From NCBI GenBank assembly GCA_020881915.1, contig JAJFPB010000003.1, positions 124,001-188,000 of the forward strand: a stretch of 64,000 nt of DNA, given 5' to 3'. This document shows positions 27,677-58,185 of the stretch, piece after piece; the stretch's first letter is position 1; each line of letters begins with the position of its first letter. Under the pieces are notes generated by a model. It saw only the letters and a program-made list of their open reading frames with translations. It did no database searches and was not told the origin of the DNA. This DNA is from Paramyrothecium sp. XJ0827. Lineage: Eukaryota; Ascomycota; Sordariomycetes; Hypocreales; Stachybotryaceae. A program made the position numbers and the translations under genes.

Positions 27677-27687
27677 CATGAGTCATA
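27677..27687. promoter_or_regulatory. bZIP-type palindrome, 10/11 match
   Basis: CATGAGTCATA, 155 bp upstream of the MBL-hydrolase ATG. Contains the perfect Gcn4/AP-1-type 9-mer ATGAGTCAT. Part of the set shared across the cluster. Confidence 0.65.
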
Positions 27688-27841
27688 ACAACCCATCAGA
27701 GACCGGCATATGGCCTCTGCGGCCCTCGAGGCAATGGTATACTTCGCGGTTGCAGCCGGTCTTTCGTGTTTCCGCAATTTGCATTTACTTTAGCTCGAGC
27801 TCTCCAATATCCATACACTGCACATTGCGTCACTCAAAGAC

Positions 27842-29014
27842 ATGGCGAGCAAAAAGGAAAATTCAGGAGCAGGTCCACCTGTGATAATGTCAGCAAATAC
27901 GGAGACTTGTCGCGTGTCTTTGATAGACACAACATGCAGCTTGACAGTGCCTAGCGACACACTGGTTGAGCCCACGATTCCGGGCCACGAGTTGATGAAC
28001 TTCCCTACCATTTCGTTTTTGATTACACACAATAGATCAAAAAGACAGCTTCTTTTCGACTTGGGCTGCCGCAGGGATTTTTGGAATCTTCCAAAGCCTA
28101 TTGTTGACACCATCGACGCAAAAGTCCCAGGCATCAAGGTCGACAAGAACCTCGCGGATATATTGAGAGAGGGAGGTGTTGACTTGGGCAAATTGGAAGC
28201 GGCAGTTATCAGTCACGGCCACTATGATCATATTGGAAACCCAGCTACATTTCCAAAGTCCATGGATCTTTTAGTTGGTCCTGGACTTTTGGAGAGCCTT
28301 CTCCCTGGTTACCCGTTGTCTGAAAATTCTCCGATCTTCCAAGAGGCACTTGAGGGGCGGGTGGTTCGAGAAATTGAATTTTCTGGACAGTCTACAATCG
28401 CTGGATTTGAAGCACATGACTACTTTGGCGATGGTAGTCTATACATCCTCGACTCTCCCGGACATGCGATAGGTCATCTTTCGGCTTTGGCTCGAACCAC
28501 CAAAGACACATTTGTGTTTTTAGGAGGTGACATTTGCCACTTCAATGGTGCCATCAGACCGAATCCATTGGTACCCATGCCTCCTTCATTTGGATGTGAT
28601 GAGATTGACACAGATTTCGGAAATGAGTTACCTCCTTACCCATCATCTACGTTTACTCAATGTCATCCACATCCAGACAAGGCCAGGACATCACCGTACT
28701 ACACGCCATGTAGCCGAGAAGGCTCATGGTACGTGAAGCCGGATCTAGCCAGCCAGAGCATTGATAATTTGAAGGCTATCGACGCGGACGATCGCTTTCT
28801 GGTGCTGATTGCTCACGATCCATCCATTATGAAAATATTGCCATTTTTCCCTGAAGGCGACGTAAACGATTGGCATGCAGCTGGCTGGAAGCAAAAGTTG
28901 CGTTGGAGATTTTTGGATGAACTACCTATTTCTGGCAAGCACCGTCCATACCTTGTGGATGGGACCTATATGAATGGCAGACTTGTTAAAACTCTCAAGG
29001 GAACGAAAGCGTGA
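27842..29014 (+). CDS. Metallo-beta-lactamase-fold hydrolase (lactonase-like)
   Basis: Binuclear-zinc hydrolase of the MBL superfamily, in one exon of 390 aa. The metal motif SHGHYDHIG (HXHXDH) is near residue 121-128; further ligands are in SPGHAIGH and FLGGDICH. The arrangement resembles AHL-lactonase/AttM-type enzymes, which open lactone rings. The N-terminus has no signal peptide, so it is probably cytosolic. Next to a Baeyer-Villiger monooxygenase cluster, opening of a lactone is an attractive role, but glyoxalase-like or thioester hydrolysis are alternatives. A bZIP palindrome lies 155 bp upstream. It is convergent with the ADH gene (138-bp gap). Confidence 0.88.
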   Translation: MASKKENSGAGPPVIMSANTETCRVSLIDTTCSLTVPSDTLVEPTIPGHELMNFPTISFLITHNRSKRQLLFDLGCRRDFWNLPKPIVDTIDAKVPGIKVDKNLADILREGGVDLGKLEAAVISHGHYDHIGNPATFPKSMDLLVGPGLLESLLPGYPLSENSPIFQEALEGRVVREIEFSGQSTIAGFEAHDYFGDGSLYILDSPGHAIGHLSALARTTKDTFVFLGGDICHFNGAIRPNPLVPMPPSFGCDEIDTDFGNELPPYPSSTFTQCHPHPDKARTSPYYTPCSREGSWYVKPDLASQSIDNLKAIDADDRFLVLIAHDPSIMKILPFFPEGDVNDWHAAGWKQKLRWRFLDELPISGKHRPYLVDGTYMNGRLVKTLKGTKA

Positions 29015-29152
29015 GAATCAACTTTCTGTTGTGGGAGATCAGTTGAATCTTCAAAATCACACACTCATTGAGTTCTTAGAACAATACTAGATTGAACGTT
29101 TGATAACCTTTCTATTATTTGCCAACTAAATACGCGACTTCATTAGGTTCAA

Positions 29153-30445
29153 CTATTTCTCGGCGTCGAATATGACTTTATGGGCCTTCATGTTATCAAA
29201 CAAGTCGTAGCCCTCCACGGCGTTGCTGAGTGGCATGATTGTCTCTGTCATGAAACTGGGGGTTGTGACTTCAGTAAGCATTGCGATTCAATGCGAGGGG
29301 TATTTATGGACTAACTTACCCAAGAAGGTGTTGCTTCCTTTCCAGTAACTTGAGTGCTTGTGGAAATATGCCTGAGTGGTTATGCTTAGCAGTCTTTTCG
29401 GAACTATGAACCGAGCACTTGAAATCGGCGAGACTTACTCCTCACGGGGCATCTTCCCATTTTGATGGTAAGATTTTTACCGTATGCTTGATTCCCAGTC
29501 CAAGGAATAGCCCCATTGTGAACTCCCACACTGGAAATAATTCCCCAAGGCCGTAGAAGATTGAACCCCATCTCAAGCCCAGAGCTATGACCGACAACCT
29601 CGATGATGACATCCGCACCACGGCCGTCAGTTAGCGTCCTCACCCGATCGAACAAGGCCTCTCGATCGGTCAAGTAATTCCAAGACTCAGCTCCAAGTTC
29701 ACTCGCTGTAGCGAGGCGGGATTCGATGCCATCAACAGCTAAAAGAGCTTTTGGCCCATACTCCATTGCAGCAATCAGGGCACACAATCCAACCGGACCA
29801 CAACCCAAAAGGACCACCACAGATTCCGAGGCCAGTCCCAAGTCTGCAAGGTCTTTCAAACCATTGTATGCGGCAAAGTAGCCGGTCGGAAAGATGTCTG
29901 CCATGAGACAAAGCTTCGCTTCGTCTATCCCCTCTGGGGCTTTGAGTACAGTAGTATCGGCCAAGGGTACTCGCACGTACTCTGCCTGTGAGCCATGCAA
30001 AAGAGGAGTGCCGAAGAGCAGACTCTTTTCACACCGCGATGAGAACCCGCGCTTGCAGTAGAAACACGAGCCACAGCTCACGGTAAATGGGCAGACAACA
30101 GCATCCCCAGGTTTAACACTTGTTACCTTGGAACCAATCTGCCACACCACACCGCTGAATTCATGGCCCATGATGAACCCTGTGGCCGATTTCTGGTGCC
30201 CGCGAAAGACATGAAGCTCACTGGTAGGAGGTTTGTATCAGCTAGAAGTACGCAGAAGTCTTGTGGATAGGTTTCACTAAGGTGCAATGCAACAATAGTC
30301 GAATGACCTACCTGCCACATAAAGCTGTGTATTTGACTTTGACAATTATGTCATTTTGGTCTTGGATTTCAGGAATGGGCCTTTCTTCCACAACGACCTG
30401 CTTGATGCCTTTCAAGACTACTGCGCGCATTGTACTTGGACTCAT
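29153..30445 (-). CDS. Zinc-dependent medium-chain alcohol dehydrogenase 1
   Basis: NAD(P)-dependent alcohol/aldehyde oxidoreductase of the MDR superfamily. Four minus-strand exons (30445-30312, 30220-29439, 29371-29320, 29255-29153) give 356 aa. It has the catalytic zinc ligands (LCGSELH and GHEFSG), the structural-zinc lobe CGSCFYCKRGFSSRC (CX2CX2CX7C), and the Rossmann motif LLGCGPVGLCAL. The last intron must use the acceptor CCCAG at 29256; the nearer GAAG gives the wrong frame for FMTETIMPLSNAVEGYDLF. The ATG at 30445 is followed five codons later by another (MRAVV), which could also be used. It is divergent from the acyl-CoA ligase. Confidence 0.88.
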
Positions 30446-30648
30446 ATTGGAAAAGTGTACCAGGAGAAACGGTTTGGCTGAATTCAGTTTAATCTTGCCT
30501 CAACTCGTCTTCCACTTCGTCAACCAGTAACGAGGCTGATATAAGGCCGTCCAGGGCGATGTCCTACATGGATAGCTGGCTATCCTTATCGAGACGGGTC
30601 AAACTAATCCCAGTCCGGGATACAAGCACATTGGTACCAAGGAGGTAC

Positions 30649-30658
30649 TGAGTCATGT
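30649..30658. promoter_or_regulatory. bZIP-type box, partial
   Basis: CTGAGTCATG, core TGAGTCA with a perfect right half-site, 204 bp upstream of the ADH1 start on the minus strand. Confidence 0.45.
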
Positions 30659-31460: not shown

Positions 31461-31471
31461 CATGACTCATG
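31461..31471. promoter_or_regulatory. bZIP-type palindrome, perfect
   Basis: CATGACTCATG, 205 bp upstream of the acyl-CoA ligase ATG. One of five perfect copies. Confidence 0.7.
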
Positions 31472-31665
31472 CCACATATACCTCGGTAAAGCGTGGCACA
31501 GCCGAAAGCTCAATCTGCCGATAATCTATGTATGTATTTGCTAAGCTGCTGGTATCTATTCCCTGACTTCTTTTTTGAGGAATCATTGTAGCACATTCTC
31601 CGAGTGCCTAGTGAATTTACCACTGCGCCCCTTTTGTTGCCGCCGCATTACGTCACTGTGTCACA

Positions 31666-33434
31666 ATGCAATATACTTCACAGAATCCTGATGTTAACGG
31701 TACGAATTTCTGCGTGGGTCCACGGACTGGCACTACAGAATACAATGACTAACACAATATGTTTCAGTCCCAAATGACGTCTCGTTATGGACGTGGTTGT
31801 TTGATACGAATCAATCCTGCCTCCGCAACTCATGCCACTCTGACCTGCAGGGATTCACAGACGTTCAGAGCAAACGTAGCATCGGTTTCACGGAGATCAA
31901 GAAATACACTTCGTACATTTCAACGGCCTTGACGCTGCATCATGGCTTGCGTGAGGGCGACGTGGTTATGGTTTACAGTAGGAACTCCGTCTGGTACCCT
32001 GTTGCTACCCTGTCAGCCGTCAGGGTAGGGGCTATAGCGTGTGGCATTTCGCCCGACTATAATTTGGAAGAACTCAGTTATAGTCTCCGTCTCACCAAGG
32101 CCAAATTTCTCATCACAACGTCGGACCATGTCTCTATCGCACTCCAAGCCGCGGAGAGATCAGGTCTTGATAAACGAAATGTCATTCTCATGGATGGAGA
32201 TGAACCGAACAACCAAACGACACACTTGCAGCATCTCGTTGCGCTTGGAGCATCACTTGGAGCGGACAAACAAAGCCACCCATTCGTGATTCCTGAAGGC
32301 AAAACCAACAAAGAAGTTTGCAGCTACTTGTGCCTTAGTAGTGGAACAACAGGTCTACCCAAGGCCGTCATGATATCGCACGCGAATATAATAGCGCAAT
32401 GTCTGCAGATTCAGCAGATCACCCCTGAGGACCACGACAAAGTGCTTGCAGCGCTGCCGTTCTATCACATTACTGGAATCGTGCACCAATTGCACCTGCC
32501 ATTTGTGATTAATGCGCACGTCTACGTCCTGCCGAAGTTCAGCATGGAAACAATGCTACAAACAGCCTCGGATTACAAGATAAAAGAGCTGTTGATTGTC
32601 CCACCCATCCTGATTCGACTTGTGCGAGAAGATTTATCGACCAAGTTTGACCTCTCTCACGTCAAACGCTTCTCGTCGGGCGCTGCGCCGCTAGCTCGGA
32701 AGGTCTTGGACCAACTGGAAAAGAAGTTTCCGGGCACTGGGTTCAAGCAAGGGTATGGAATGACAGAGTCTTGCTCTGCCATTACATCGCATCCACCTTC
32801 GAAGTACTCCTATAAGTACGCAGATAAGGTTGGAATGTTGGTAGCCTCTACGGAGGTTAGAGTGATTGATCCAGAGACCGGGGCCAAATGCGGAGTTGGC
32901 AGAGCCGGTGAGATCTGGGTCCGTGGCCCTCAAATAGCAATGGGGTACTGGAATAACCCCGAAGCTACCGCAGATAGCTTCGACGAAGATGGATTCCTTC
33001 ATACGGGCGACATAGGGTATTTTGATGAGGAGGGCTTACTTTCTATTACGGATAGAATTAAGGAGATGATCAAGGTCAAAGGCATCGGCGTAGCACCAGC
33101 CGAATTGGAAAATGCCCTACTTGGCCATGCAGCTGTCGCCGACGTCGCTGTATGCGGCGTCCCCAACGACCGCGCGGGTGAGCGACCCAAGGCGTTTGTG
33201 GTTCTTAAACCAGCGGCAATGAGAGCAAACACTCCTGAGGAAACGGCCAAGGCTCTGATTCAGTACATCAAATCCGAAAAGGCGAGGCATAAATGGCTCG
33301 CCGAAGTCGAGATTGTTCAGGAAATACCGAAGAGTGCAGCAGGTAAAATTCTGCGACGAAAGTTGAAAGCAAGCTCTCCAACAAGAATTGGGACCATCGT
33401 CGTTCGTGATGAGCAAATGGTGGCCAAACTTTAG
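31666..33434 (+). CDS. 4-coumarate:CoA-ligase-like acyl-CoA synthetase, peroxisomal (PTS1)
   Basis: ANL-superfamily enzyme that activates a carboxylic acid via acyl-AMP to an acyl-CoA. Two exons (31666-31699 and 31768-33434, 68-bp intron) give 566 aa. Motifs in order: the P-loop SSGTTGLPKAV at about residue 200, GYGMTESC at about 340, HTGDIGYFDEEGLL and the hinge DRIKEMIKVKGIGVAP at about 415-435, and the catalytic-Lys region KSAAGKILRRKL at about 532. The C-terminus is VAKL; AKL is a classic PTS1, so import into peroxisomes is expected. The short first exon (MQYTSQNPDVN) is typical of fungal 4CL-like proteins. In this cluster it would activate the acid made by the neighbouring aldehyde dehydrogenase for beta-oxidation. 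Confidence 0.92.
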
Positions 33435-34618: not shown

Positions 34619-36601
34619 ATGCAGCTCGAGCCACACCTCACCCAGCTGTTTATCGGTAATAAGGTGTGCCATTCATAACTCCAAAGGAAGAAGGGATGAG
34701 AAAGGCGATTACTAACACTACTCCTCCAGTACGTTGACTGCCGGAGCAAAAAGACGTATGTAACTTCAACCCAATAACATTTTACAAATATCCTTGGCCG
34801 GCCAACACGGTTTGGCCACTCTGGGTTTAGAAGCCGAGAAGAGGCTAATGTTCCAAAACATTTTGTAGTATTGCTGTATACAATCCAGCAACAACCGAGC
34901 TGGTCAGCGACAAGATCCCAGTAGCCGGAGAGGAGGATGTTGATGAGGCTGTCCGGTTGGCCAACCAGGCATTTGCGGCGGACTCGCCATGGCGCAAAAT
35001 GACCAATAGCGAACGGCAAAAAATCCTGCTCAAGTTTGCAGACATCCTTGAAGCCAACCAGGAACGGCTCGCTCATCTAACGCGTCTGACCCTTGGGGCG
35101 CCATATCTACCTTTCGGAAAGTCCGAGATCGATACAGCCATTAACTGCTTTAGATGCAAGTGCCACCCCACGTTTACGTGTGACAAGATAGGATGTTATT
35201 TCGGAGAAAACAAAGCGCTAACGACATGCCGAGTCTTTAGATTATGCGGGTTGGGTAGACAAGCATGCCGGGCAAGCTTTTCCCGCCGACGATGGGTTCT
35301 ACAAGATTGTGCGGAACGAGCCCATTGGTGTAGTAGCTGGGTGAGTCCAACTCGATACGTTCCAGTACTCCAACAACATCAAAGTCGTCTATAGCGTCTC
35401 GCACACAATGTGTCCAGCGTGACTCTGATACTGACTCTTATCGTGCTGCAGAATCATCCCGTGGAATGGTCCACTCGCATCAGTTGGTCTCAAAGCCGCG
35501 CCGGCACTGGCAACGGGCAACGTATTCATTCTAAAACCGAGCGAAAAGACTCCATTAATGGCTGCAGAGCTAGGAAAACTGGTGCTCCAGGCCGGGTTTC
35601 CTCCTGGTGTATTTCAAGTAGTGACCGGTGATGGAAGTACTGGAGCACTACTGGCATCACACATGCACGTGGCCAAGGTCAGCTTCACGGGAAGCATTCC
35701 GACCGGCAAGGCAGTGCAGGTCATGGCTGCGAAAAGCAACCTCAAAAGGGTCACACTGGAGCTGGGAGGCAAAAGCCCAGCGGTCGTGTTCAATGACGCT
35801 AATTTGGACAATGCGGTCAATTGGTTCGTGAAAGTCTAGCGGTGGCGCAGAGGCGTTATAACTGTTACGGCATGAGACGTTGCTAACGAGGTGTTGCTTG
35901 ATAGGACTGTCAACGCACTCCTGACCAATAGCGGACAAATTTGCTTCGCGGCAACGAGAGTCTACGTCCAATCGGGGATCTATGATCAATTCATCAAGGG
36001 GTACAACGCAGCAATTCAGGAGAAGAAGAAGCGAATTGGGAATCCCGAGGCGGAAGGTGTAGAATTCGGCCCTGTTGTAGACAAGGCACAGTACGAGCGG
36101 ATCATGGGCATCATCGCCGATGCGAAAGACAAGAAGGAGGGCACGCTGCTCGCAGGCGGCAACATCATGGACGGAAAGGTAAGAGGCTGTCAAGAGACCC
36201 ACGACTGCTTCGAATGTACGCTAACACTGGGGTAGCAGGGTTACTTTATAGAGCCAACCGTCTTCACAGAGACGGAAGACGGTGCCTTCATCCACAGGGA
36301 CGAAATCTTCGGACCAGTGGTGGTAATCAACAAGTTTGAGACGGAGGAAGAGGTTTTACGCAAATGCAACGACAGCAGGTACGGGTTGATGGCGGGCGTA
36401 TTCACGCAGGACATCAACCGGGCACTCCGGCTGAGCTCACAGATCGACGCAGGCGTGGTGGGCGTCAATTGCATCAGCACCATCACCCCCTCATGCCCGT
36501 TTGGTGGGACCAAGGAGAGCGGGTTGGGGCGCGAGAATGGAGAGCATGCGCTGCGAGCCTACACAGAGCCCAAGACGGTGTTGATCAACCTCAACTTCTG
36601 A
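34619..36601 (+). CDS. NAD(P)-dependent aldehyde dehydrogenase
   Basis: Oxidises an aldehyde to the acid. Seven exons fit: 34619-34663, 34730-34755, 34869-35155, 35241-35340, 35452-35823, 35905-36178 and 36239-36601, giving 488 aa, the usual ALDH length. The catalytic Glu is in VTLELGGKSP (about residue 254) and the nucleophilic Cys in NSGQICFAATR (about 287). IIPWNGP and FTGSIPTGKAV mark the cofactor site, and EIFGPVVVI and SGLGRENGEHALRAYT the C-terminal signature. The third intron (35156-35240) starts with GC (GCAAGT), needed to give NCFRYYAGW. The second exon is only 26 nt. Downstream of the CoA ligase on the same strand, it can supply its acid substrate. Confidence 0.92.
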
Positions 36602-37411: not shown

Positions 37412-39179
37412 ATGCCAGAGCAAGCATCCAGGAAGCGCTCCCGTGCTGTAGCAGCCCTCACCGAGGAGCAAATCCGGCACAAGCGCGACATTGATCGCCG
37501 TGCCCAGCGCGCTTTCCGGAAGCGCACCAAGGACTGCATCTCCAACCTCGAGCTGCAGTTCAAAGAGCTGCAGGAGACCTGTGGCCAACGAGAGCGCGAT
37601 CTGCGGGTCATGCGGGAGCAAAATCAACTCTTGGTGCAATGCCTAGAAAACATTGTCGACCTGGCCTCGTCTACCCTGACCCGGATTAATCCTGATAATA
37701 GTGATAGCGAGCCTTCGCTTGCTGACGCCGAGCCAGCGGCCCAAGATATGGCGATGGAGGTGGAACCGGTCAGCTGTGGGGAAGCTAGCCATCAAGCTGT
37801 AAGCCCAACTGGCGAATCACCCATTGAAGTCTTTCGACATGAAGACCTTGCACAAATGGTCGAGTCGACCTCTGTACCGGAAGAACAGAGACGCCCATCA
37901 GCAGCATCAGCACTCGCTTCCGTAGTGGATGCTTCTGCACCAGATGAGACTATCCATGTCCAAGCGGCACAAATATATTCTCCTAAATCCCCCAACCATT
38001 TGAGAGAAGTGACTCCGTCCGGGGGAGAAATCTCGCCTACCTCCGCAGCAGCTGCCAGTCCTCCATTGCACAGCATGGACGGCCCGATCGTGTCGCCACT
38101 CACGGGTTATCAGGCAGACGAACATTCTCTTGGTCAAAATCCGCCACTATCATATACCGAGGGTGATCAGATACCCCTCCAGTCCTCAGGCGTCGCAGGT
38201 TCCATTGGCGGAGACGGCTCTCCAAAGGTGCGATCTTTTATTGCCATACCAACGCCCGCTAGCACAATGGGGAGCTCGGATGTGCGTGATAGCAGCCTCA
38301 ATCCAAAGGCCGCATATCATGTATTGCCAGAGCACCTGCCCTCTACATGTCCCCTGGATTCGATCCTTTTAGATTTCCTGCACGCGCAAAGGGATCTCAT
38401 TGCACGCGGCATGCCTTTCGATGCCATTGCTGGATCTCAAAAACCTACGACCAAAGCCATGATAGACCCATCCCTCGTCTCATCTGTACCTCCACTCAGC
38501 GGTGTCATGTCTGGCGTCCTTTCGACTTTCCAACATGTCCACAAGACTGAAAAACTGGCATTCTTTTGGTTAATGTGCCTGACAATGACGGTATGTCCAA
38601 TATTTCCGCCCCTTGTGAGATATTTTGCTGTTCGAAGCAAGTTGTCAGGTTTTCGGCTTTTTGTGGAGAACCCAAGTTGCGATTAGATACACGAACGTAG
38701 CTAATGGGTATTTCATAGTGGCAAATATCACCTAACAGCGAGAAATATCAAGCTATGCCGCCATGGTTGAGGCCTACAGTGACCCAAGTTGCTGTGTCGC
38801 ACCCCTGCTGGATTGACAACATCCCATGGTAAGCTTTCTTCTCCTTGCTGTTGCAAATCCCCATCTATCTTGCTTCTCAGACAATCAGTCATTCGTTTCA
38901 AAATCTAACTTGCGGCAAAGGCCTGGTGTAAGAGACGTCCTCATCGAAAAGGCGGATGAATATCCATTTCACATATTCTCCGATTATTACTCTCAGAATG
39001 TGTCAGTCAACTGGCCGTTCGATAGTGCTGACGCGGTGTCCGACCTTGGTGGCGGCGACAGTGTCTTGCATTCTATATTCGAGAAGCATATTCGGAACCT
39101 CAAGAATTGGAGTGTGACGCCAGAGTTTTGTGCCAAGTTTCCCGAGTTGGAAGCTGCCATCTACCGTCAAGGCTATTGA
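37412..39179 (+). CDS. bZIP-like transcription factor with DUF3425 domain
   Basis: Nuclear regulator of a fungal-specific group. Three exons (37412-38590, 38719-38828, 38921-39179; introns 128 and 92 bp) give 515 aa. The start at 37412 puts the basic region almost at the N-terminus: KRDIDRRAQRAFRKRTKDCI (about residues 28-47), running into a leucine-zipper-like heptad region to about residue 90. The position of the usual invariant Asn holds Asp (DRRAQRAFR), as in many fungal DUF3425 proteins. The middle 230 residues are low-complexity Ser/Pro/Ala/Glu. The C-terminal DUF3425 domain includes the segment CPLDSILLDFLHAQRDLIARG, FWLMCLTMT, HPCWIDNIPWPGVRD and HIFSDYY. It lies inside the cluster whose promoters carry a bZIP-type palindrome, so it is the natural pathway regulator. 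Confidence 0.9.
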
Positions 39180-47728: not shown

Positions 47729-50443
47729 TTACAATCCGAGACCTAATTCCTGTGCAAAATACAAAGATTGATCATTTTGAATCCAACCATCCATTTCCTC
47801 TTTAGTAATGTCCGAAAGACCTATGTAGTCGATGCAATCAGTCTCGATGCTGACTAAATTTTCTTTCTGCGTTAGGAAAGCCCCAAAAACTGTCTGTTCG
47901 TTCTCGATAGTCGAGGTGCTACTGGGTCTTGTTGTTTCGGGTGGGATCGTGAGCTCGGGCGGGAAATCTATCTCGTTGGGCAGTCGATCCAGACTCAAGG
48001 CTAAATCGATGGTCATGACGACTTTCAGGAAGCTAGCTGGGTTGTGTTTGATGATATCTGAACAACCATTGTCACCACATAGTGATGGGGTGGCCATCGC
48101 TCTGACAATCCTTGGGGAAAACGTCATCCAATCAGCGGCATTAGCCGAGTCCACAACCTGTACAAGGATGTGAGATACCCAACTCACGCCATCATAGTGT
48201 GGCTCACACGCCTTCATAGCTCGTACTAGTGTTCGCAGGCGAGCTTTAATTCTCTCGGCTCTCTTGACGGTACACTTGGCTAAGGGGGGGTGTCCAGAAC
48301 CATCGGGAAGTGATAACTTATTCTCAATCATGTAGATTGCTAACGGGAGTGCCGAACACCCCACGGCACTACTAGGAAGCCATTGCGCCAGTCCAAGGCT
48401 AAGAAGGCGTTCGAGGCATTCAGCTATGTCATTTGGTGCATGGCAAAGCTCGTTGCATATCTGCAACAATTGCGCGCTGGGGTATAGAAGAGGCGATAGC
48501 GGATCCTTATTGGTCATAGATAGTACAGCGTAGAGTTCGCAGCTATGGAGAGCCATTTTGGAAGACCTTAGAAAAAAGTCAGTTGAGATATTTCATAGTT
48601 GGCTGGAGAGTTAAGGCGCAAGAAATAGTATGCCGAAAGAAGGCGTGAATACCTACTGGTAATACATCCAAAGGACATTGGCAAACAATAAGACCGATGC
48701 ATGGCCAGGTTCTGTCTTGAAGTCTGTAGTGCTCTGTGCCGCTTGCAATGGCGAGACTAAGGGGGTAGCCTTGTCGACCCATTGCTTCAACTCATTCTTA
48801 CAGGCAAGAATCCTGTTGAACTTCTGCATACACCACGATCCGTCCGTGGCGACTTCAGCCTGCGGAGGATAGGCAAGCTCCAGAATTTCGGTCATGCAAA
48901 CGCATAGTTCCACCAATAAAGTCATGAGAATGGCCAAGGAGAACTTCGAGTCAGGGCTGTTGACTTGCGAACGCTCGAATTCATCGGCAATATCCTCAAG
49001 GTTCAAAGGGGTTTGCGAAACGAAATCAAAGTGGTGTTGGGTGATCTGTACATTACGCCGGACACAGAGGGGCATAATTCGGTCCCTAATTATGCAGCAC
49101 CACCAGATTCGTCGCAGGAGGTTTTTTTTCTTTGGATCATGGCACAACGAAGACGCTAACTCATGATTCTGGCTTTCTTTGGCCGCATCCATAGCGAGGG
49201 CCTTCGCTTGTTGGATTGCAACATTCAACCAAGCTGAATTCTGTTGCTTCCGACCTTTCGTGAATGCAGGGCACCAGTAACTGAGCAATAGAGCAACCTG
49301 TGCAATCGTGACAGGGTCTGTCTCAGTCTCGAAGTCGTACAAAAGCTTAAAACAATGGCGGTCAGTTCTATTGGCCTTTGAACTTGCCCGTTTCAACGCT
49401 TATTGCACTGGAGGAATCATACCTTGGCTTTCCTGTAAAAGCAAGCCATAGCTGCACGCGCATCTTCAACGCCAAGAGCGTGCACGGTCTCTATAGACAC
49501 ATACTATCGCATCCGTTATCTTAGCAGAAATTTCCAGGTGATGGACCAAAAACTACTTACACTGCAAGCAACAAATATCATTCCATGGAGCAGAAGCAGG
49601 GGTAGTTTCTGTTGCGACTGCGCGCCGGATCCAAGGTTTAATTCGGGCCCTTCCTGGGCAAACATCTCCCAGAAATCCCCCTCATTCATTAGTGGAAGCA
49701 TCGGATGAACATACAGAAAGTATGCTTTCATTAGCGCATCAAGAGTTGTTTTGTTTGGTACTCGCAAGCACCCCTGCGAATCCAGATAGTCAAGGTCGCA
49801 AACCATAAGACAATCCAGCTTGGACACGGTCAAGAATGGCATCTTGGAGTAATGAATTTCATTCCTTGAAGCCATCCGTACAGCTGATCCAGGTGAATTT
49901 GCGTTATCATGCGCACGCGTGTACATGTATTGTTGCTCGGAATCTGAAGCGCCTGGAGACATTTCTGATATCGAACTTTGCGGAGAAACCGCATCGTTCG
50001 ATGTACTCAGTTCATCTGTGGGGGTCTCTGAGGAACGCCAAGAGTTTCTCTTTGTTGAATCATGGTTTCTTGATTGAAAAGCTTCATTCTCGAGCCCGAG
50101 CACAGGCTCGTTGCCCTGAAGCGAGCAGGAGTCAACGCCCCCGCCAATGCCCACGTTTATATCGCTGCTTTCATCGCTTTGATTGCCAGTGTCAGCAGGG
50201 ATCCCGAGGAATTAGGGCACAGAATTCATACTGGGGTCTCATTTTCTTCGCGCGGGGTGTTAGGATACATGCGCTGCTGTGGAAGCGGCAGTTTCCGCAT
50301 GGCTGGCCTTTTCGGACAACGTCGCACCGAACCTTGCGCTTTCGACAATTCAGGCATGCTTTTGCCGCTCTTTTGTGACCAAGCTGAGCCATATTGGCCT
50401 CTGGAAACATGACCAAAGGGTCGCTTGGCTGCGTGGCAATCAT
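47729..50443 (-). CDS. Zn2Cys6 transcription factor with fungal-specific regulatory domain
   Basis: Second regulator of the right-hand block. Five minus-strand exons (50443-50232, 50176-49561, 49503-49423, 49345-48657, 48566-47729) give about 811 aa. The zinc cluster is CLNC-RKRKVR-C-8 residues-CGNC-RFHSSA-C (CX2CX6CX8CX2CX6C), at about residues 28-57, with ATG at 50443. The fungal-specific domain is evident from AYFLYVHPMLPLMNEGDFW, LLYDFETETDPVTIAQVALLLSYW and RRIWWCCIIRDRIMPLCVRR. This is the layout of regulators such as those of alkane, amide or cutinase metabolism, but the target cannot be told. It shares a 1-kb divergent promoter with the Baeyer-Villiger monooxygenase, which is the likeliest target. 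Confidence 0.9.
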
Positions 50444-51499
50444 GTTCACTAGTCAATCCCAAGGTGAATCGTGATGCCAACAGAACAGCAAAAGGGTTTT
50501 GTAAACTGGTTCAGAGCTTGAATTCCCCTCCGCTCACGAAAGAAGTGAAGAATTTGAGGACAAGTCAAACCAGCAAAGCCGACCTAGCGATGAATTGTCC
50601 GTTGAGCAATTCGGCATTTCTTGTTGAATGAGCGGGAAAATCGCCCATCGGTCACGCTCCCCGATGCCGGTGTATAGAACGCGTTCGAGTTTCTCAAGTC
50701 ACGCGTGTATAAATCACGTATTCCTCATAAAAGATTAATGCGGCGCTATCATGAAATGTGTCACAGAATAAATTTTGGAAGACGGAGCACCTGTTCGATG
50801 TAGTGGTAAAGCTAATAAAGTGCCAAGCTACATGTGGATGGGTTCAGCCTACGTGTCCACGCTACCATTCTTGTCCTGCTGAAATATCATTGAAGCCACA
50901 TGAACTTTCTTGTACCCCAGATGAAACAAGCGCAAAAACACCGTGTGTGTGCGCAGAGCTATCTCATATTATGGTGTACTATCATATCAGAGCCTGCGTC
51001 AGTCACTCAAGACTAGCCCAACAGCGATCGGCCAAATCACGCTCGGACCGATGGGGCCAGTGTTGCGAGAGATGGAGAGGGTTCACTGCCTGGCAAATAT
51101 TGGGCATGACTCATGATCTTTCTTTGGAGTAGTCTGTCATGGGGCAGATGAAAACATGACTAATGTCGACTCTAAATCTGGTCGAACAAGGTGGAGAGGC
51201 ATGGTGGAGTGTGGTACAGCACAGTCAAGGGTGGAGTCTCTGGGGTTGACCATCCAATGCTCTGCACGACGGAGAGTGGAGAGCCTTGTGGTCTCACTGG
51301 TTGTCATCAAGTATTGATGCACCAACCGTGTTTGCTTTCTTGCTTTCACAATTTCTCCACATGTTTAGGGACAGGCAGTTTATCTATCTTCAATCTATGC
51401 CAATTCGCGTCCAGGAAAACAAAGTCTTTGGAAGTTTTTCTATCATCTCTTTTTCCTCCTTTAGTGCACCTGTCTTCAATCACAAGTTAGGAAACAACA
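50444..51499. other. Divergent promoter, Zn2Cys6 gene and monooxygenase
   Basis: About 1.05 kb without a gene. Contains a perfect palindrome at 51105 and a one-mismatch box CATGACTAATG at 51155-51165. Confidence 0.5.
51105..51115. promoter_or_regulatory. bZIP-type palindrome, perfect
   Basis: CATGACTCATG, 395 bp upstream of the monooxygenase ATG and about 660 bp from the Zn2Cys6 start. Confidence 0.7.
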
Positions 51500-53398
51500 A
51501 TGGCCCCACCAAAGACAATCATTATTGGCGGTGGTGCCGCAGGTATTGCCATGGCTCATACGTTGAAGTGGAAGCTTGGCTACTCAAACTTTGCCGTAAG
51601 ATAACGTCACAACTTTTGAAGTTACTTACCTCAATTCGATTTAAATGTTGACTTCGATTGATGGCACAGGTATATGACAAGCGGGAAGGCCTTGGGGGGA
51701 CTTGGAGAGCAAATACCTACCCTGGATGGTAAGTGTCCAGCTATCGCCAGCTGTGGATCTCATCATACAGAATCTGTCACTGACATTATGAAGTGGCTCA
51801 GATGTTCCCATTCATCTCTATTCTTTCAGTTTCAATCTCAACCCTGACTGGACGCAACAGCTGGCGGATCAGGAAGAGATTTTGAAGTGTAGGTCATCGG
51901 TTGGACACCGCTCCTTGGTTTTGGTAATGGCTCACCGTTTCGCCCCCTCAGATATGGAGTCGACCGTCGACAAATTTAAACTCCGGTCGCATTTTCTGTT
52001 CAGTTCCGAGTGTATCGCTGCGAAATGGACTGATAACCAATGGCATGTCACTTTTGTCAACCCGACAACAAATCGAAAGTGGACTGAGAAATGCGATATC
52101 CTCTTGTCCGCAGTTGGAGGCTTCTCCCAACCCAGAGAGGCAAGGTTCCCAGGCTTGGACCGTTTCAATGGAAAGATCTTTCATACAGCTGAATGGGATC
52201 ACAGCTTCGACATAAGAGGTAAGAGAGTGGCGGTCATTGGCAATGGCTGCAGCGCTGCACAGGTCGTTCCCTGCATTGCACCTCAGGTGCAACAGCTAAC
52301 GCAGTATGCGCGGAGTCCACAATGGTATCACGAGCGTCCTAATAGGGGCTTTTCGAGCTTGGACAAATTTTGTTTCCGATACATTCCATTTCTGCAGCGT
52401 TACTACAGACTGAAAATCTTTCTGAAGACGGACCAACTCGCCGCGGTCTACGGTCCCAACGAGAGCCAAGTGAGACAACGACTTGCCACCGAGGACGAAG
52501 CCAAGAGATACATTTACAGGGAGGCCCCGAAAAAGTACCATGATTTCATTGTCCCGGACTTTCCCCTTGGATGCAAGAGGAGGATCTACGATCCCGGATA
52601 TCTGGCATCTTTGCACCGGGACAATGTGGAGCTGCTCCCGGAGGGCATCAAAGAGTTCACCGAGACAGGCCTCGTCAGCGAGACGGGCAAAGAGGCAGAA
52701 TTCGATGCTGTCATTTTAGCTACTGGATTCAAAGTCACGTCGTTTCTGACCCCCATGGAGATTACTGGCAAAACTGGAAAGAGCCTTCAAAGCCAGTGGG
52801 ATGGTCACCGAGGAGCACAAGCATACATGGGAACATTTGTTCACAATTTTCCCAATATGGCTATCCTGTGAGAAATCCTTAGCGCTCTCATTCTTGGTCA
52901 TTACTAACATACTCAAGCTTCGGGCCAAACACTTTTCCGGCGTTCAACTCTGTCATTTACTCCGTGGAGGTACAAGTCAGCTATATCGCGGACATGCTGA
53001 TCAAGCCTATTCTCGACGAATATGCCACAACTGTGGAAGTCAAACAAAGTGCTGAAGAGGTTTTCGTGGAAAAACTCGACAGGGTTCTATCTGAGACCGT
53101 ATTTGCTGCTAACTGTAGCAATTGGTACATTAACAGTGCCGGCCGGAATTCAGCGGCCTGGCCAGGCCTAGCATGGACCTTTTGGAAGGCGACTCTATTG
53201 CCCAAATGGAAGAATTTTACCACGACTGGCGGATCTAGCATATGGGTTCTCCGTAAAATATGGCGTAATGTCAGGTCAATGCCGGTTTTGGCATGGTTTG
53301 CTCTTGTCTTTGCAGCCTTCGTATCCCAGACCTGGAGGCCTTGTAGTATGGTGCCGGCATACAGTGTCGGTCATCTAAAGGGGATTTGGAAATTATAG
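51500..53398 (+). CDS. Baeyer-Villiger monooxygenase (type I flavoprotein)
   Basis: FAD- and NADPH-dependent enzyme that inserts oxygen beside a ketone, giving an ester or lactone. Five exons (51500-51595, 51670-51728, 51794-51888, 51952-52867, 52918-53398) give 548 aa. First FAD motif: IIGGGAAGIAMA, residues 8-19. Near residue 154 the sequence FNGKIFHTAEWD fits the BVMO fingerprint FXGXXXHXXXW(P/D) exactly. The NADPH Rossmann motif is VIGNGCSAAQ, about residue 178. ATGF precedes the C-terminal domain. The third exon uses the acceptor GAAG at 51793; the nearer CAG would create a stop. The C-terminal WFALVFAAFVSQ is hydrophobic and might anchor it to membranes. An N- or S-oxidising FMO is the alternative. 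Confidence 0.9.
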
Positions 53399-53979: not shown

Positions 53980-55978
53980 TTAGACTGCCTCGACGTACTC
54001 GGCACTACCACTCGTCTTCTCTTGCGACTTCTCTTTAGGATTGGTGCTTCGCCCTGAAAGTTGTTGTGCCAATGTGCTGCTTTTAACTTCCTCTTTTGCA
54101 AAAATCAAATCAATTTCCTCCAGCGATTTACCTGTGGTCTAAAAAGAGTCAGAGTTAAACAAAGAATTAAACAAAGAAAGGAGTTGACTTTACTCACCTC
54201 AGGACACATAAAATATACAAAGAAGACAGCTAGGAAGCAGGACAGCAACATCCAGATCCAAGTCTTCCAACCGACATTCTGGAGAGCGATACCACCTGCA
54301 AAGACAGTTATGAAGGAGAAGACCCATTCTCCTAGAGCTCCTGCCGCCGCACCCGCATGGCGTAGTCGAAGAGGAGCAATCTACGCATGAAGATGGATTA
54401 GCATGCAGTTTTCTCGGAACGGAGTTGGGCTGGAGTGAAAGGTATACCTCTGGGCCGTACAACCAACAAACACCAATCCATCCATAACCAAACACCATGT
54501 TGTAGACAAAGATGGCAGCAACAGCAATCCATTGTGTGGCATTTGTAGGATTCGGCAAGCCAATCATTGCCACAAAGACAGCCATGCAAGCTGTCAAAGC
54601 AGCAGCTGAGTACATCATGACGTTACGGCGGCCAACTTTCTCAATTGTCCAAACCAGTGGGACGGTGCCTAGAGCGAAAGCGGTGTTCATAATAGCCGCC
54701 AGCAACTGAGCCATGAAGCTTGAAAGGCCCACTTGAGAGAATATGATGGTACTGTAATAGACAGAAAGGTTGATTCCTAGAGGCGGTGGTTCAGAAAGTA
54801 AGCAGCCGGGAACTCTTCGGAAAATATACAACTTACCCATCATTTGCTGAATGGCGAGAATTAGAAACGAAATACGAATGCGTCGGCCCGCGCGCAAATC
54901 ACTTCTGTCCCAAATAAGATCAATGGCCTTGAAGCTGCGTTCGTTCGAGGTCTCCAGCTGGATACTGGCTTGGATGGCCATTTTGGTGCTCTGGACTCTT
55001 GGATCATTTATGTCCGCATCAAACAGCCTGCAGAGCGTATCATCTCCCTCTGCATCGTATCCTTTGGCGTAGTACCATCGCGGCGTATCAGGAAGGAAGA
55101 GGACTATGCCTCCAGCGGAAAGCGCAAACACGATTTGAAGGGCAATAGGGAGTCTCTATCATTATGGTGACACATCGGGTTAACAACAGTGGCAGAAAGA
55201 CCATCTGGATGTGTCACTTACCCAAGATATCTGTGTAGTGAGCCGAGTAAAGCCAAAGTCAACCCAGTATGCGACTGCAGCGCCTGACACCAGAAATATG
55301 CAGGTAACAGCCACATCAGGACCTCGTTGAGAGTCCTCCAAAGCCATTTCGGCCTGATAGGTGGGAATTGAGCAAGAAATGAACTAGTTTTATGTCAGTA
55401 ACCCGCAAGGCGTCTCTTGCCATGAGACAGAAATGAGTATGTCCTTCTTACGCCGATACCAAAGCCCTGTTACGGAGGTTATTCTCTGAAGATGTCAAGG
55501 CACATGGCGAGATGTTCTGAGCACCTACACAAACGATGCGACCCACTATCATGTGGGGAACGGACCATGCAGAAGCCTGCAAGCTGCCTCCTATGACAAC
55601 ACACAGGTTCCCAAGAAGCACACACATTCGACGACCGAGAGGCATTCCAAAAAAAATGACACCAAGCGAGCATACTGCCGCAGCAAGTGTGTATGCGGAG
55701 GCAATCATGGGGATCACGTAAGTTCCGGTAGGATGCTAAAATCATCAGCACGAGAAGTTTCGCAATGGGAAACACTTACACCCATGGCCTTTCTGAAAGG
55801 TTCCGTCTCCTGCACACCACCCAACACTCCTGCATCATACCCGTACATGAGGAATGACTGTCTCGTGTGAGCACCAGGCCGCCGTCCAAGTATTCGCGGA
55901 TAATTAGTAACTCACAATAGCACAGCTTGTGGACAGCATTTGCCTGATGGCGTTGCCCTTGATCTTGGACTTGAACAT
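53980..55978 (-). CDS. MFS sugar-porter family transporter 2
   Basis: Second sugar-porter protein, 12 membrane segments, plasma membrane. Nine minus-strand exons fit: 55978-55916, 55857-55780, 55735-55529, 55466-55452, 55383-55222, 55155-54837, 54776-54448, 54380-54198 and 54138-53980, giving 504 aa. Motifs: MYGYDAGVLGG, GMPLGRRMCV, the RIVC-GFGIG-FISCSIPTYQAE segment, FLPDTPRWYYA, EKVGRRNVMM, CWLYGPEIAPLRLRH and PETTGKSLEEID. The fourth exon is only 15 nt (GFGIG), and one intron (55736-55779) is only 44 bp. It is divergent from the old yellow enzyme, with a perfect bZIP palindrome between them. Substrate is not clear. Confidence 0.9.
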
Positions 55979-56721
55979 AGTTGCGAGGGAATGAAAGCAG
56001 CTTAGCTCCCACTATGGGGTCTTGGTTGCTTGGAGTGGAACTCGGATGAAATAGAAGGATCAGGGGCGGATGATGTGCGTGCAACAGTGGATTCAAGATC
56101 AGTTTGCCGGCTATATATGTCCAACTTTGCACGATTGTAGTCGCTTGGCCAATCAATCAATCGCTTGTTCATCAATTCCCAGACCAAAGCCATCAGCAGG
56201 GAATCTGGGGTAGGTCTGAGCCATGCGGAGTGCAAGTCTAGTTGCATCATTCGCGTGGTTTCAGCTACGCACCACCAAATTGTAACAAAAAGGCCATGAG
56301 ATCATGACCAAAAATGAGAAATATTAAGCTTGCCGCCATTGCATGTGGCGCTCCGCCACATGTCCGACCAAAAAGTCTCGATTCCGGAGCCTCGCCCGAC
56401 TTTCAAACCTTCTCCACTACTACTGCTTTCCTGCCAAAGATCAAGTCGCAGCGCAGCGTGTCATGAGTCATGGCTGACCTGCCATCGTTATTGTTCACGA
56501 CACCGTGAGAAAACGAGACAAGAAAAAGTAGGACCGATGGGCCAACATTCTGGTCCACTAGAGAAAATGTTCTAGCTGGGCTGCATACACACGATGTTTA
56601 TTTTTCAAGTGTTTCCATAACAAAGAACATTTTCCTTCCTGGATTGTTTTTGATTTCCTCACCACAGAAGAAAACGCATTATTACCAACGAATTACCCAT
56701 TCGACAAGGTTTCAAGACAAG
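55979..56721. other. Divergent promoter, transporter 2 and old yellow enzyme
   Basis: About 740 bp without a gene; carries the perfect palindrome at 56462. Confidence 0.5.
56462..56472. promoter_or_regulatory. bZIP-type palindrome, perfect
   Basis: CATGAGTCATG, 260 bp upstream of the old yellow enzyme ATG and 484 bp from the transporter 2 start. It could serve both genes. Confidence 0.7.
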
Positions 56722-57819
56722 ATGGAGCAATCACGCTTGTTTCAGTCGATCAAAGTCGGCAAGATCACTCTGAATCATCGGATTGGGCTTTGCCCTCTCA
56801 CACGATTTCGCGCGTCTGACAGTCACATCCCCCTAGACATAACGGCCGAATACTACGCCCAGCGAGGGTCTGTTCCCGGGACACTACTGATCAGCGAAGG
56901 AACTTTTATCTCCGCAGCCGACGGAGGTTACGCAAATGTGCCTGGAATCTACGAGCAGAGCCAGATCGATGCTTGGAGGAAAGTCACAGACGCGGTTCAT
57001 TCCAAGGGCAGCTACATCTTCTGCCAGTTATGGTCACTTGGCCGCGCTGCCGATGTAGAAGTTGCCAAGCAAGAACAGATGACCATAGTCAGTTCCGACA
57101 GCATCCCTATCGACTCGTCGGCTGCCATACCCCACAAATTGTCGATTGAGGAGATTCAGGTTCGGATCAAGAACTATGTACAAGCAGCCAAAAACGCAAT
57201 CAGCGCCGGTTTCGACGGAGTTGAACTCCACGGTGCCAATGGTTACCTTATTGACCAGTTCATCCAAGATCGATGTAATCGGCGAGACGACGCCTACGGA
57301 GGAAGCATTGAGAACCGCTCCCGGTTTGCTGTCGAGGTTATCAAGGCTGTTGCCGAAGCTATCGGACCAGAGAGGGTAGGAATTCGCTTTAGCCCTTGGA
57401 GTACATACAATGGAATGAGAATGGACGACCCGATCCCGCAGTTCTCTGATGTTATCCAGAAGATTGATGTATTGGATCTTGCCTACATCCACTTGGTAGA
57501 GTCAAGAATTGCGGGCAACAGCGACGTGCAAGCAGCGGATAAGTTGCAGTTTGCATATGATATTTGGAACGGGCCTTTGCTGATTGCTGGAGGGTATAGC
57601 CCAGAATCTGCCCGGCAGCTCGTGGATGAAGAGCTTCCGGAGAAGAATGTAATAGTCATGTTCGGCCGACATTTTATCTCAACCCCTGACTTGCCCTTTA
57701 GGGTGCGAGAAGGCCTTGAGCTCAATCAGTACAACCGCGACACTTTCTACACACCGAAGGCACCTGCTGGCTACATAGATTACGAGTTCAGTAGCGAGTT
57801 CTTGGCTCAAAAGGCCTGA
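56722..57819 (+). CDS. Old yellow enzyme (NADH:flavin oxidoreductase)
   Basis: FMN-dependent ene-reductase that reduces the C=C bond of enones such as carvone or cyclohexenone. One exon, 365 aa, beginning MEQSRLFQSIKVGK. The TIM-barrel motifs are clear: LCPLTRFRA near residue 30 (the Thr contacts FMN), the substrate-binding pair in GVELHGANGYLIDQF (about residues 166-180), CNRRDDAYGGSIENRSRF, VGIRFSPW, and MFGRHFISTPDLPFR near the C-terminus. No targeting signal. Classical fungal OYE length. In this cluster it would act before the Baeyer-Villiger step. Confidence 0.93.
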   Translation: MEQSRLFQSIKVGKITLNHRIGLCPLTRFRASDSHIPLDITAEYYAQRGSVPGTLLISEGTFISAADGGYANVPGIYEQSQIDAWRKVTDAVHSKGSYIFCQLWSLGRAADVEVAKQEQMTIVSSDSIPIDSSAAIPHKLSIEEIQVRIKNYVQAAKNAISAGFDGVELHGANGYLIDQFIQDRCNRRDDAYGGSIENRSRFAVEVIKAVAEAIGPERVGIRFSPWSTYNGMRMDDPIPQFSDVIQKIDVLDLAYIHLVESRIAGNSDVQAADKLQFAYDIWNGPLLIAGGYSPESARQLVDEELPEKNVIVMFGRHFISTPDLPFRVREGLELNQYNRDTFYTPKAPAGYIDYEFSSEFLAQKA

Positions 57820-58185
57820 AGGAATATATCATCATTGGTTACATAAAGCAGGTTCCATTTGTCCGAGGACCATCAAGCTATCGTGTCAAACGTTATGACC
57901 ATTGCCCCTGGATTACAGATGGCAAATGTCCTGAAGTACATCACTTCATCTTTGTTAGCGGTGCACCTTACATTCATCGAATCTTTGCATGACTCACCCG
58001 CATGTTTCGTCCCCCTCACGACATGCTTAGCTCCACTTTATGATTTGTGGCGTAGCACTCACCCACCTCCAATACAAAGCATAACAGGACTGCTGAACGC
58101 AAAATTGCACCCATTCTTAGTTCGATGGGCATGTGCTTCCTTCAATTTGAATTGTTCCTATCACAACAGTCTCGCGGCAAATTCC
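57820..58185. other. Intergenic, promoter of SDR 1
   Basis: About 370 bp. An upstream in-frame stretch exists before the chosen ATG but lacks family similarity. It contains the box CATGACTCAC at 57988-57997, 198 bp upstream of the ATG. Confidence 0.4.
57988..57997. promoter_or_regulatory. bZIP-type box, partial
   Basis: CATGACTCAC, core TGACTCA intact, right half-site degenerate; 198 bp upstream of SDR 1. Confidence 0.4.

What the first reader, a model, noticed from the sequence alone, without database searches (positions are those of the whole stretch)
27677..57997. An 11-bp bZIP-type palindrome marks the promoters of the whole right-hand cluster
CATGA(C/G)TCATG occurs perfectly at 31461, 36768, 42085, 51105 and 56462. 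Copies with the full 9-mer ATGASTCAT occur at 27677 and 44437, and weaker copies at 30649, 34245, 57988 and 60212. Each lies about 120-650 bp upstream of a cluster gene: MBL hydrolase, ADH 1, CoA ligase, ALDH, bZIP, transporter 1, ADH 2, BVMO/Zn2Cys6, OYE/transporter 2, SDR 1 and EthD. At equal base frequencies about 0.03 perfect 11-mers are expected in 64 kb. I saw none in the left 27.6 kb. The cluster encodes its own bZIP protein, which suggests a self-contained regulon.
Basis: partly seen in the sequence, partly recalled or inferred. Interest (0 to 1): 0.85.

Follow-up and report, generated by a model that had tools for sequence, protein, structure and literature searches.

The report
Private switch code of catabolic cluster
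A fungal gene cluster that looks built to break down ring-shaped compounds carries, in front of every predicted gene, the same short mirror-image DNA word or a near copy of it; the exact word is otherwise very rare in the genome and is most likely the landing site of a regulator protein that the cluster itself encodes.

Summary
All five perfect CATGASTCATG copies and both extra 9-mers are present. The 51.77-Mb genome has only 19 perfect copies: five in this 34-kb cluster, 14 scattered singly (541-fold local excess). All 15 CATGASTMA sites in the cluster are intergenic; with a one-base-off palindrome at 60212, each of 15 predicted genes has an element upstream, the nearest at 120-662 bp.

Best explanation: the cluster-encoded bZIP protein (Pap1/Yap-like basic region, DUF3425 C-terminus) binds these sites and drives a lactone-forming catabolic pathway (OYE, Baeyer-Villiger monooxygenase, lactonase-like MBL, dehydrogenases, CoA ligase, AtuA). 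Support: 18 of 30 bZIP homologues share a contig with a listed BVMO or AtuA homologue; flanks and TGASTAA forms fit Gcn4/CpcA poorly. Against: the invariant bZIP Asn is Asp (27 of 28 aligned homologues), the one DUF3425 bZIP with a mapped site that I found binds another word, and one perfect copy sits at a valyl-tRNA synthetase gene, as CpcA would explain. Motif conservation in other fungi was not testable. A solid but unproven regulon of a known kind.

The parts
27478..27488 (.). CCTGACTCATG, half-flanked element, MBL promoter (354 bp from ATG)
27677..27687 (.). CATGAGTCATA, 9-mer element, MBL promoter (157 bp)
27842..29014 (+). Metallo-beta-lactamase-fold hydrolase, lactonase-like
   Evidence: PF00753; NCBIfam AHL-lactonase models, below their cut-offs; PDB N-acylhomoserine lactonase 3.6e-7
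29153..30430 (-). Zinc alcohol dehydrogenase 1
   Evidence: PF08240, PF00107
30649..30657 (-). CATGACTCA half-flanked element, ADH1 promoter (219 bp)
31461..31471 (.). CATGACTCATG perfect palindrome, CoA ligase promoter (195 bp)
31666..33434 (+). AMP-forming acyl-CoA ligase
   Evidence: PF00501, PF13193
34245..34253 (+). CATGACTCA element, ALDH promoter (366 bp)
34619..36601 (+). Aldehyde dehydrogenase
   Evidence: PF00171
36768..36778 (.). CATGAGTCATG perfect palindrome, promoter of the bZIP gene itself (634 bp)
37412..39179 (+). bZIP regulator with Asp-type basic region and DUF3425 C-terminus; exons 37412-38590, 38719-38828, 38921-39179
   Evidence: model; PF11905; Pap1 is the best solved match of its N-terminus, weak, E 0.026; homologues
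39594..41704 (-). MFS (sugar-type) transporter 1
   Evidence: PF00083
42085..42095 (.). CATGAGTCATG perfect palindrome, transporter 1 promoter (381 bp)
42134..42144 (+). CATGAGTAATG variant, 49 bp from the palindrome
42521..44020 (-). Zinc alcohol dehydrogenase 2 (low-coordinate end approximate, not at a stop codon)
   Evidence: PF00107, PF08240
44299..44309 (+). CATGACTAATG variant, ADH2 promoter (279 bp)
44437..44447 (.). CATGAGTCATC, 9-mer element, ADH2 promoter (417 bp)
44915..46916 (-).
   Evidence: PF07287 8.6e-168 and PF23544
47164..47173 (-). CATGACTAAT element, AtuA promoter (249 bp)
47729..50443 (-). Zn2Cys6 regulator
   Evidence: PF00172; model
51105..51115 (.). CATGACTCATG perfect palindrome, shared BVMO / Zn2Cys6 promoter
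51155..51165 (+). CATGACTAATG variant, 50 bp from the palindrome
51500..53398 (+). Baeyer-Villiger-type flavin monooxygenase
   Evidence: model; FMO-like; PDB cyclohexanone monooxygenase 1.2e-58
53980..55978 (-). MFS transporter 2 (exon borders rough)
   Evidence: PF00083
56462..56472 (.). CATGAGTCATG perfect palindrome, shared OYE / transporter 2 promoter
56722..57819 (+). Old yellow enzyme (ene-reductase)
   Evidence: PF00724; PDB chanoclavine-I aldehyde reductase 5.3e-113
57988..57996 (+). CATGACTCA element, SDR1 promoter (190 bp)
58186..59256 (+). Short-chain dehydrogenase 1 (internal exon borders uncertain)
   Evidence: PF00106; start codon
59542..60092 (-). EthD-domain protein
   Evidence: PF07110
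60212..60222 (.). CATGAATCATG, centre-mismatched palindrome between EthD (120 bp) and SDR2 (405 bp)
60627..61546 (+). Short-chain dehydrogenase 2 (no splice found; stretch 60627-61100 scanned)
   Evidence: PF00106; stop codon read

Best explanation
The repeated word is the operator of one pathway regulon. The bZIP-DUF3425 protein made at 37412-39179 dimerises and binds CATGASTCATG, and the less symmetric CATGASTAATG, in the promoters of the cluster, its own included, so that it switches on an inducible set of genes and amplifies itself. The set encodes ring-opening catabolism: OYE reduces an enone, the BVMO makes a lactone, the MBL-fold lactonase opens it, dehydrogenases and ALDH oxidise the product, the CoA ligase and AtuA feed it towards beta-oxidation, and two transporters move the substrate. 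Shown here: the sites, their rarity and placement, the gene families, and linkage of bZIP, BVMO and AtuA homologues in other fungi. Inferred: that this bZIP binds, that it activates, autoregulation, the order of steps, and the substrate class (a cyclic, perhaps terpenoid, ketone). DUF3425 as signal-sensing part is a guess.
For: Rarity: 5 of 19 genomic perfect 11-mers in 34 kb (0.009 expected) and 3 of 35 CATGASTAATG (0.021 expected). Placement: 15 of 15 CATGASTMA sites in the cluster lie outside the predicted genes, which leave 10.7 of 34.5 kb; no CATGASTMA in the 30 kb fetched on either side of the window. Flanks: 11 of 16 cluster TGASTCA cores carry CA/TG on at least one side against 11% of cores elsewhere, 5 of 16 on both sides against 0.33%. 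The five palindromes share nothing beyond the word: 16-34 of 100 flanking bases identical in 10 pairs, either orientation. TGA(C/G)TAA is listed as a Yap1 element (PMC8450079, passages) and the basic region is of the AQxxFR kind. Linkage: 13 of 30 bZIP homologue rows share a contig length with a listed BVMO homologue and 11 of 30 with a listed AtuA homologue (18 either, 6 both), with close locus tags in Fusarium nematophilum (5548, 5550, 5563), Neonectria ditissima (g3529, g3532, g3538), F. decemcellulare (13229, 13232) and Colletotrichum tabaci (00935, 00936). The N-terminus of homologue P0001 is predicted as one long helix, 18-97.
Against: No binding, expression or mutant data. The residue at the invariant bZIP Asn is Asp (27 of 28 aligned homologues, Glu in one); in Phytophthora infestans bZIPs with Cys or Val there gave array motifs in 2 of 12 cases against 11 of 17 with Asn (PMC11267843, passages). 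Pfam bZIP models did not hit it at 1e-3, and the Pap1 match is not significant alone (E 0.026). The DUF3425 bZIP A7370 of Curvularia binds ACGGCTGAC (PMC13113314, passages). One perfect 11-mer lies upstream of valyl-tRNA synthetase. The simulations of PMC8450079 favour a GA step, not CA, beside Yap1 sites (passages). 12 of 30 bZIP rows show no shared contig. Motif conservation elsewhere untested.
Confidence: 0.72

Rival explanations
1. General control: the Gcn4/CpcA orthologue reads these sites as ordinary TGASTCA elements and ties the cluster to amino-acid starvation; the cluster bZIP has another target.
For: The core is the CpcA element TGA(C/G)TCA (PMC3199737, passages). A valyl-tRNA synthetase gene has three AP-1-type sites in about 115 bp, one of them a perfect 11-mer. 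The core alone is 5.7-fold enriched in the cluster.
Against: Most of the enrichment sits in the flanks, which most genomic TGASTCA sites lack; CATGASTAATG is enriched too; the one other target locus with a core plausibly upstream, argininosuccinate synthase, has no CA/TG beside it (n = 1). CpcA itself was not identified in this genome.
Confidence: 0.1
2. Another bZIP (a Yap1-type or other factor), alone or as a heterodimer with the cluster bZIP, which may be unable to bind alone because of the Asp, reads the sites.
For: 13 PF07716 matches over the cut-off in this genome; Asp at the invariant Asn; TGA(C/G)TAA is a Yap1 element; heterodimer-only binding is proposed for non-Asn oomycete bZIPs (PMC11267843); a DUF1446 (AtuA-family) gene, AN10086, is in the table of genes of the NapA section of PMC5371717, NapA being the Aspergillus nidulans Yap1 orthologue (passages).
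Against: A general Yap factor would not explain why the flanked word is concentrated in one cluster; TTASTAA, a main Yap1 site, is not enriched here (3 sites left of 27.4 kb, 4 right of it).
Confidence: 0.13
3. The sites are a by-product: chance, or copies spread by duplication of promoter segments, without regulatory meaning.
For: The word was picked after reading the sequence; the 14 copies elsewhere are about as many as the reversed control word (15).
Against: Shuffles give 0.04; the unselected word count puts it first; the five copies share only 16-34 of 100 flanking bases pairwise, so they are not segmental duplicates.
Confidence: 0.03

Closest known systems
Apf2 / Api-box of the apicidin F cluster, Fusarium fujikuroi (PMC4109984, passages)
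   Same: Cluster-encoded basic-region regulator with a near-palindromic box in almost all cluster promoters, enriched over the genome; boxes shared by divergent promoters
   Different: bANK protein with ankyrin repeats, box TGACGTGA, box absent from the regulator's own promoter, biosynthetic cluster; promoter mutation was done there, nothing comparable here
Yap8 and its 13-bp element, Saccharomyces cerevisiae (PMC3865217, passages)
   Same: AP-1-type bZIP with altered basic region, a long flank-dependent palindrome and a very small regulon
   Different: Core TTAATAA, two target genes, other residues changed; DUF3425 not mentioned in the passages seen
A7370, DUF3425 bZIP of Curvularia lunata (PMC13113314, passages)
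   Same: bZIP plus DUF3425 architecture, regulator of a metabolic cluster
   Different: Encoded outside the cluster it controls; binds ACGGCTGAC in the cuaF promoter
Gcn4/CpcA cross-pathway element (PMC3199737, passages)
   Same: Core TGASTCA
   Different: No CA/TG flank requirement known to me (recalled); amino-acid supply genes rather than ring catabolism
Monoterpene ketone catabolism: Rhodococcus DCL14 limonene/carvone route (PMC7794910, passages) and Grosmannia clavigera BVMOs (PMC8120277, passages)
   Same: Ene reduction, BVMO lactone formation, lactone hydrolysis, CoA activation
   Different: Substrate here unknown; lactonase-like MBL where DCL14 uses MlhB; orthology to CMQ_7007 or CMQ_6956 not tested

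Membership tests
Pathway-specific regulator with cluster-private box | Regulator encoded in the cluster | tested here: met
   bZIP-DUF3425 at 37412-39179; homologue linked to a BVMO or AtuA homologue in 18 of 30 rows
Pathway-specific regulator with cluster-private box | Box in cluster promoters, rare elsewhere | tested here: met
   15 of 15 predicted starts have an element upstream within 1.2 kb, nearest 120-662 bp (EthD and SDR2 have only the mismatched palindrome at 60212); 5 of 19 genomic copies
Pathway-specific regulator with cluster-private box | Regulator binds the box and is needed for expression | not testable with these tools
   No binding or expression data
Yap/Pap1 AP-1 bZIP family | NxxAQxxFR basic-region signature | tested here: not met
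   DxxAQxxFR in the window protein; Asp in 27 of 28 aligned homologues. It may work like a Yap protein; not filed as a member
Yap/Pap1 AP-1 bZIP family | Leucine-zipper helix after the basic region | tested here: inconclusive
   Long helix 18-97 predicted for P0001; heptad d positions L, L, R, M, L, I in the window protein
DUF3425 bZIP group | PF11905 domain | tested here: met
   98.5 bits, cut-off 27.1
Gcn4/CpcA regulon | TGASTCA core in the promoters | tested here: met
   16 cores in 27400-61545; AtuA has only the TGACTAA form and EthD/SDR2 only TGAATCA
Gcn4/CpcA regulon | Bound and induced by CpcA | not testable with these tools
   No data
Monoterpenoid ketone catabolic cluster | Ene-reductase, BVMO, lactone hydrolase, CoA ligase together | tested here: met
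   Families only; the lactonase call is weak
Monoterpenoid ketone catabolic cluster | Growth on, or turnover of, a terpenoid ketone | not testable with these tools
   No assay

The most novel reading that the evidence does not exclude
A lineage of fungal bZIPs in which the 'invariant' DNA-reading Asn is fixed as Asp reads an extended 11-bp AP-1 palindrome (CATGASTCATG, tolerating CATGASTAATG) and forms the dedicated, autoregulated control code of an unnamed catabolic gene island (bZIP, BVMO, AtuA core) spread over many filamentous ascomycetes; because the basic region barely changes among homologues, the same word should mark this island in all of them.
Probability: 0.4. Interest if true: 0.7.

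Novelty: new member of a known kind. Interest (0 to 1): 0.52.

Why it matters
If true it gives a readable code for a catabolic cluster whose bZIP, BVMO and AtuA genes are linked in a range of ascomycetes including Fusarium and Colletotrichum species, and it names the regulator to test. It would give a binding site for this Asp-type bZIP group (I know of none) and a case where a supposedly obligatory DNA contact of bZIP proteins has been swapped and kept. The word could then be used to delimit such clusters in other genomes. Literature, open-access library only: no paper holds AtuA, Baeyer-Villiger and gene cluster together (0); DUF1446, fungi and gene cluster gave 2 papers, one seen in passages, one in the listing only, neither describing such a cluster as far as seen; no listed paper holds the phrase 'acyclic terpene utilization' (15 of 1,954 listed, ranked by number of terms held).

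Tried and rejected
CpcA flanks: three target families were sought (IGPD, argininosuccinate synthase, KARI). In the fetched pieces the three IGPD loci had no TGASTCA, the single KARI-locus core lies on the downstream side of the predicted gene, and only the argininosuccinate synthase locus had a core plausibly upstream. So the CpcA comparison rests on two genes, counting valyl-tRNA synthetase, which speaks for CpcA.

The 14 other perfect sites: 10 kb round each was fetched and genes predicted. 2 of 14 are inside a predicted exon (L010, L012), 1 overlaps a predicted start codon (L006); none of the 14 loci holds a second perfect copy. I saw no shared function, judging by eye; only the valyl-tRNA synthetase was confirmed by a family search. 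A wider regulon is neither shown nor excluded.

A second word, ACCGATGGGSC, is 2 of 38 genome-wide and was chosen after the fact; left as a lead. No RNA family at gathering score and no tandem repeat was found in the window. The Grosmannia limonene paper is not held.

Rows left out: homologues P0023 and P0030 were not put into the alignment (28 of 30 used). The 18 linked bZIP rows include two of one Thelonectria contig.

Gene models come from a home-made predictor with hand-set splice sites; exon borders of ADH1, ADH2, ALDH, both transporters and both SDR genes are uncertain, and one search found no valid splice for SDR1 or SDR2.


Full report
What was claimed and what is there. Five perfect CATGASTCATG, seven ATGASTCAT and the named weaker copies are present. 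The window is bases 124,001-188,000 of a 5.70-Mb contig of an unnamed 51.77-Mb genome in 15 contigs; introns, Zn2Cys6 and DUF3425 genes mark it as fungal.

Rarity. The perfect 11-mer occurs 19 times in the genome, 5 of them here; no two of the other 14 lie closer than about 320 kb (listing). The reversed-pattern control gives 15. The 9-mer occurs 142 times (reversed control 183), 7 of them here; the bare core TGASTCA occurs 4249 times (reversed control 3371). In 27,400-61,545 there are 16 cores where 2.8 are expected (5.7-fold), but 5 perfect 11-mers where 0.009 are expected (541-fold). So the outer CA/TG arms carry most of the signal: 11 of 16 cluster cores have them on at least one side against 11% of cores elsewhere, 5 of 16 on both sides against 0.33% (with for the one-sided count). 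P values were computed after the motif had been seen. An unselected 11-mer count in 10.7 kb of cluster intergenic sequence still ranks CATGACTCATG first, and 7-, 8- and 9-mer comparisons with 200 kb of other sequence of the same genome rank TGACTCA, ATGACTCA and CATGACTCA first (that background includes the 14 motif-bearing loci, so it is conservative).

A second form. The one-mismatch scan shows CATGAGTAATG at 42134 and CATGACTAATG at 44299 and 51155, two of the three 49-50 bp from a perfect palindrome. Genome-wide this word has 35 copies, 3 here, 0.021 expected. TGA(C/G)TAA is listed among Yap1 response elements (PMC8450079, passages read).

Placement. 15 of 15 CATGASTMA sites in the cluster lie outside the predicted genes. 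None was found in the 30 kb fetched on either side of the window, nor in the window right of 58 kb; two isolated matches lie at 4468 and 6446. Counting the mismatched palindrome at 60212, all 15 predicted starts, all ATG, have an element upstream, the nearest at 120-662 bp, the bZIP gene (634 bp) included. The five palindromes share no more than 16-34 of 100 flanking bases pairwise, so they are not recent segment copies. Gene models rest on a home-made predictor.

The genes. Pfam and NCBIfam place an MBL-fold hydrolase with sub-threshold lactonase matches, two zinc ADHs, an acyl-CoA ligase, an ALDH, a DUF3425 protein with a bZIP-like N-terminus, two sugar-type MFS transporters, AtuA, a Zn2Cys6 regulator, an FMO-like monooxygenase, an old yellow enzyme, two SDRs and an EthD protein. 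The monooxygenase's best solved relatives are cyclohexanone monooxygenases (1.2e-58), the MBL's an N-acylhomoserine lactonase (3.6e-7), the OYE's chanoclavine-I aldehyde reductase (5.3e-113). The order ene-reduction, BVMO, lactone hydrolysis, CoA activation is that described for bacterial limonene and carvone breakdown (PMC7794910, passages); the substrate here is a guess.

The regulator. The basic region reads RDIDRRAQRAFRKRTKDC. The best solved match is Pap1, weak (E 0.026), whose aligned Asn is Asp here. In 28 aligned homologues (two of the 30 left out) the position is Asp in 27 and Glu in 1, while the Q and last R of A-Q-x-x-F-R are invariant and F is kept in 26. A homologue is predicted to form one helix over residues 18-97. 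Such conservation argues for a kept DNA-binding job, but the Asp is a real caveat: P. infestans bZIPs with Cys or Val there gave array motifs in 2 of 12 cases (PMC11267843, passages), and the DUF3425 bZIP A7370 binds ACGGCTGAC (PMC13113314, passages). A Fusarium graminearum survey names Ile, not Asp, as its one replacement of the core Asn (PMC9028111, passages).

Conservation. The protein database gave 30 bZIP homologues and lists of the best 120 each for BVMO and AtuA. Twelve rows show neither; some misses are expected because lists are capped and each row is a 90% cluster with one representative contig, others may be real absences. In Fusarium nematophilum, Neonectria ditissima, F. decemcellulare and Colletotrichum tabaci the locus tags lie within 15 of each other; in F. 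decemcellulare the listed AtuA is on another, 13-kb contig. The DNA of those clusters is not held here, so conservation of the motif itself was not tested.

Who reads it? The cluster bZIP is favoured because the word is concentrated where that protein is encoded, because the flanks and the TGASTAA form are not what a Gcn4-type reader needs, and because the gene travels with the pathway. CpcA remains possible: its element is the same core (PMC3199737, passages), and a perfect 11-mer with two more AP-1-type sites lies upstream of valyl-tRNA synthetase. The argininosuccinate synthase locus has one core without CA/TG arms. Other bZIPs exist (13 PF07716 matches over the cut-off), and an AtuA-family gene appears in a table of the Aspergillus NapA (Yap1) study (PMC5371717, passages).

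Standing. A box shared by a cluster with its own regulator is a known kind of system (Api-box, PMC4109984, passages); this is a new, well-marked example on a catabolic cluster, with an unusual bZIP as probable reader. Searches that turned up no description of such a cluster: 2 papers, passages seen; 0 papers; 2 papers; 15 of 1,954 listed; 15 of 109 listed.

Noticed in passing
51047-51057 and 56533-56543: ACCGATGGGSC in the two divergent promoters, 58-71 bp from the palindromes; 2 of 38 genome-wide. Possible site of the Zn2Cys6 protein; chosen after the fact.
   Followed up: partly
36951, 47675, 60259: GCGGGGAAA, resembling a CreA-type site (motif recalled): three copies in cluster intergenic DNA, one more at 20576, 0 in 200 kb of other fetched sequence.
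   Followed up: no
L007:4890-5005: Valyl-tRNA synthetase promoter with three AP-1-type sites, one a perfect CATGACTCATG.
   Followed up: partly
window 16004-17134 and 20772-21995: Two DDE_1 transposase genes left of the cluster.
   Followed up: no
P0045 and P0099: BVMO homologues of Neonectria ditissima and Aaosphaeria arxii carry an extra SDR domain, either a fusion or two neighbouring genes joined by annotation.
   Followed up: no
P0007 and P0021, P0034: Thelonectria olida has two bZIP homologues and a BVMO homologue on contigs of the same length (85,535), so probably on one contig.
   Followed up: no
P0001 residues 318-525: DUF3425 domain is predicted with high confidence (pLDDT mostly above 90) with no PDB match at E 1e-3; not searched as a domain alone.
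   Followed up: partly
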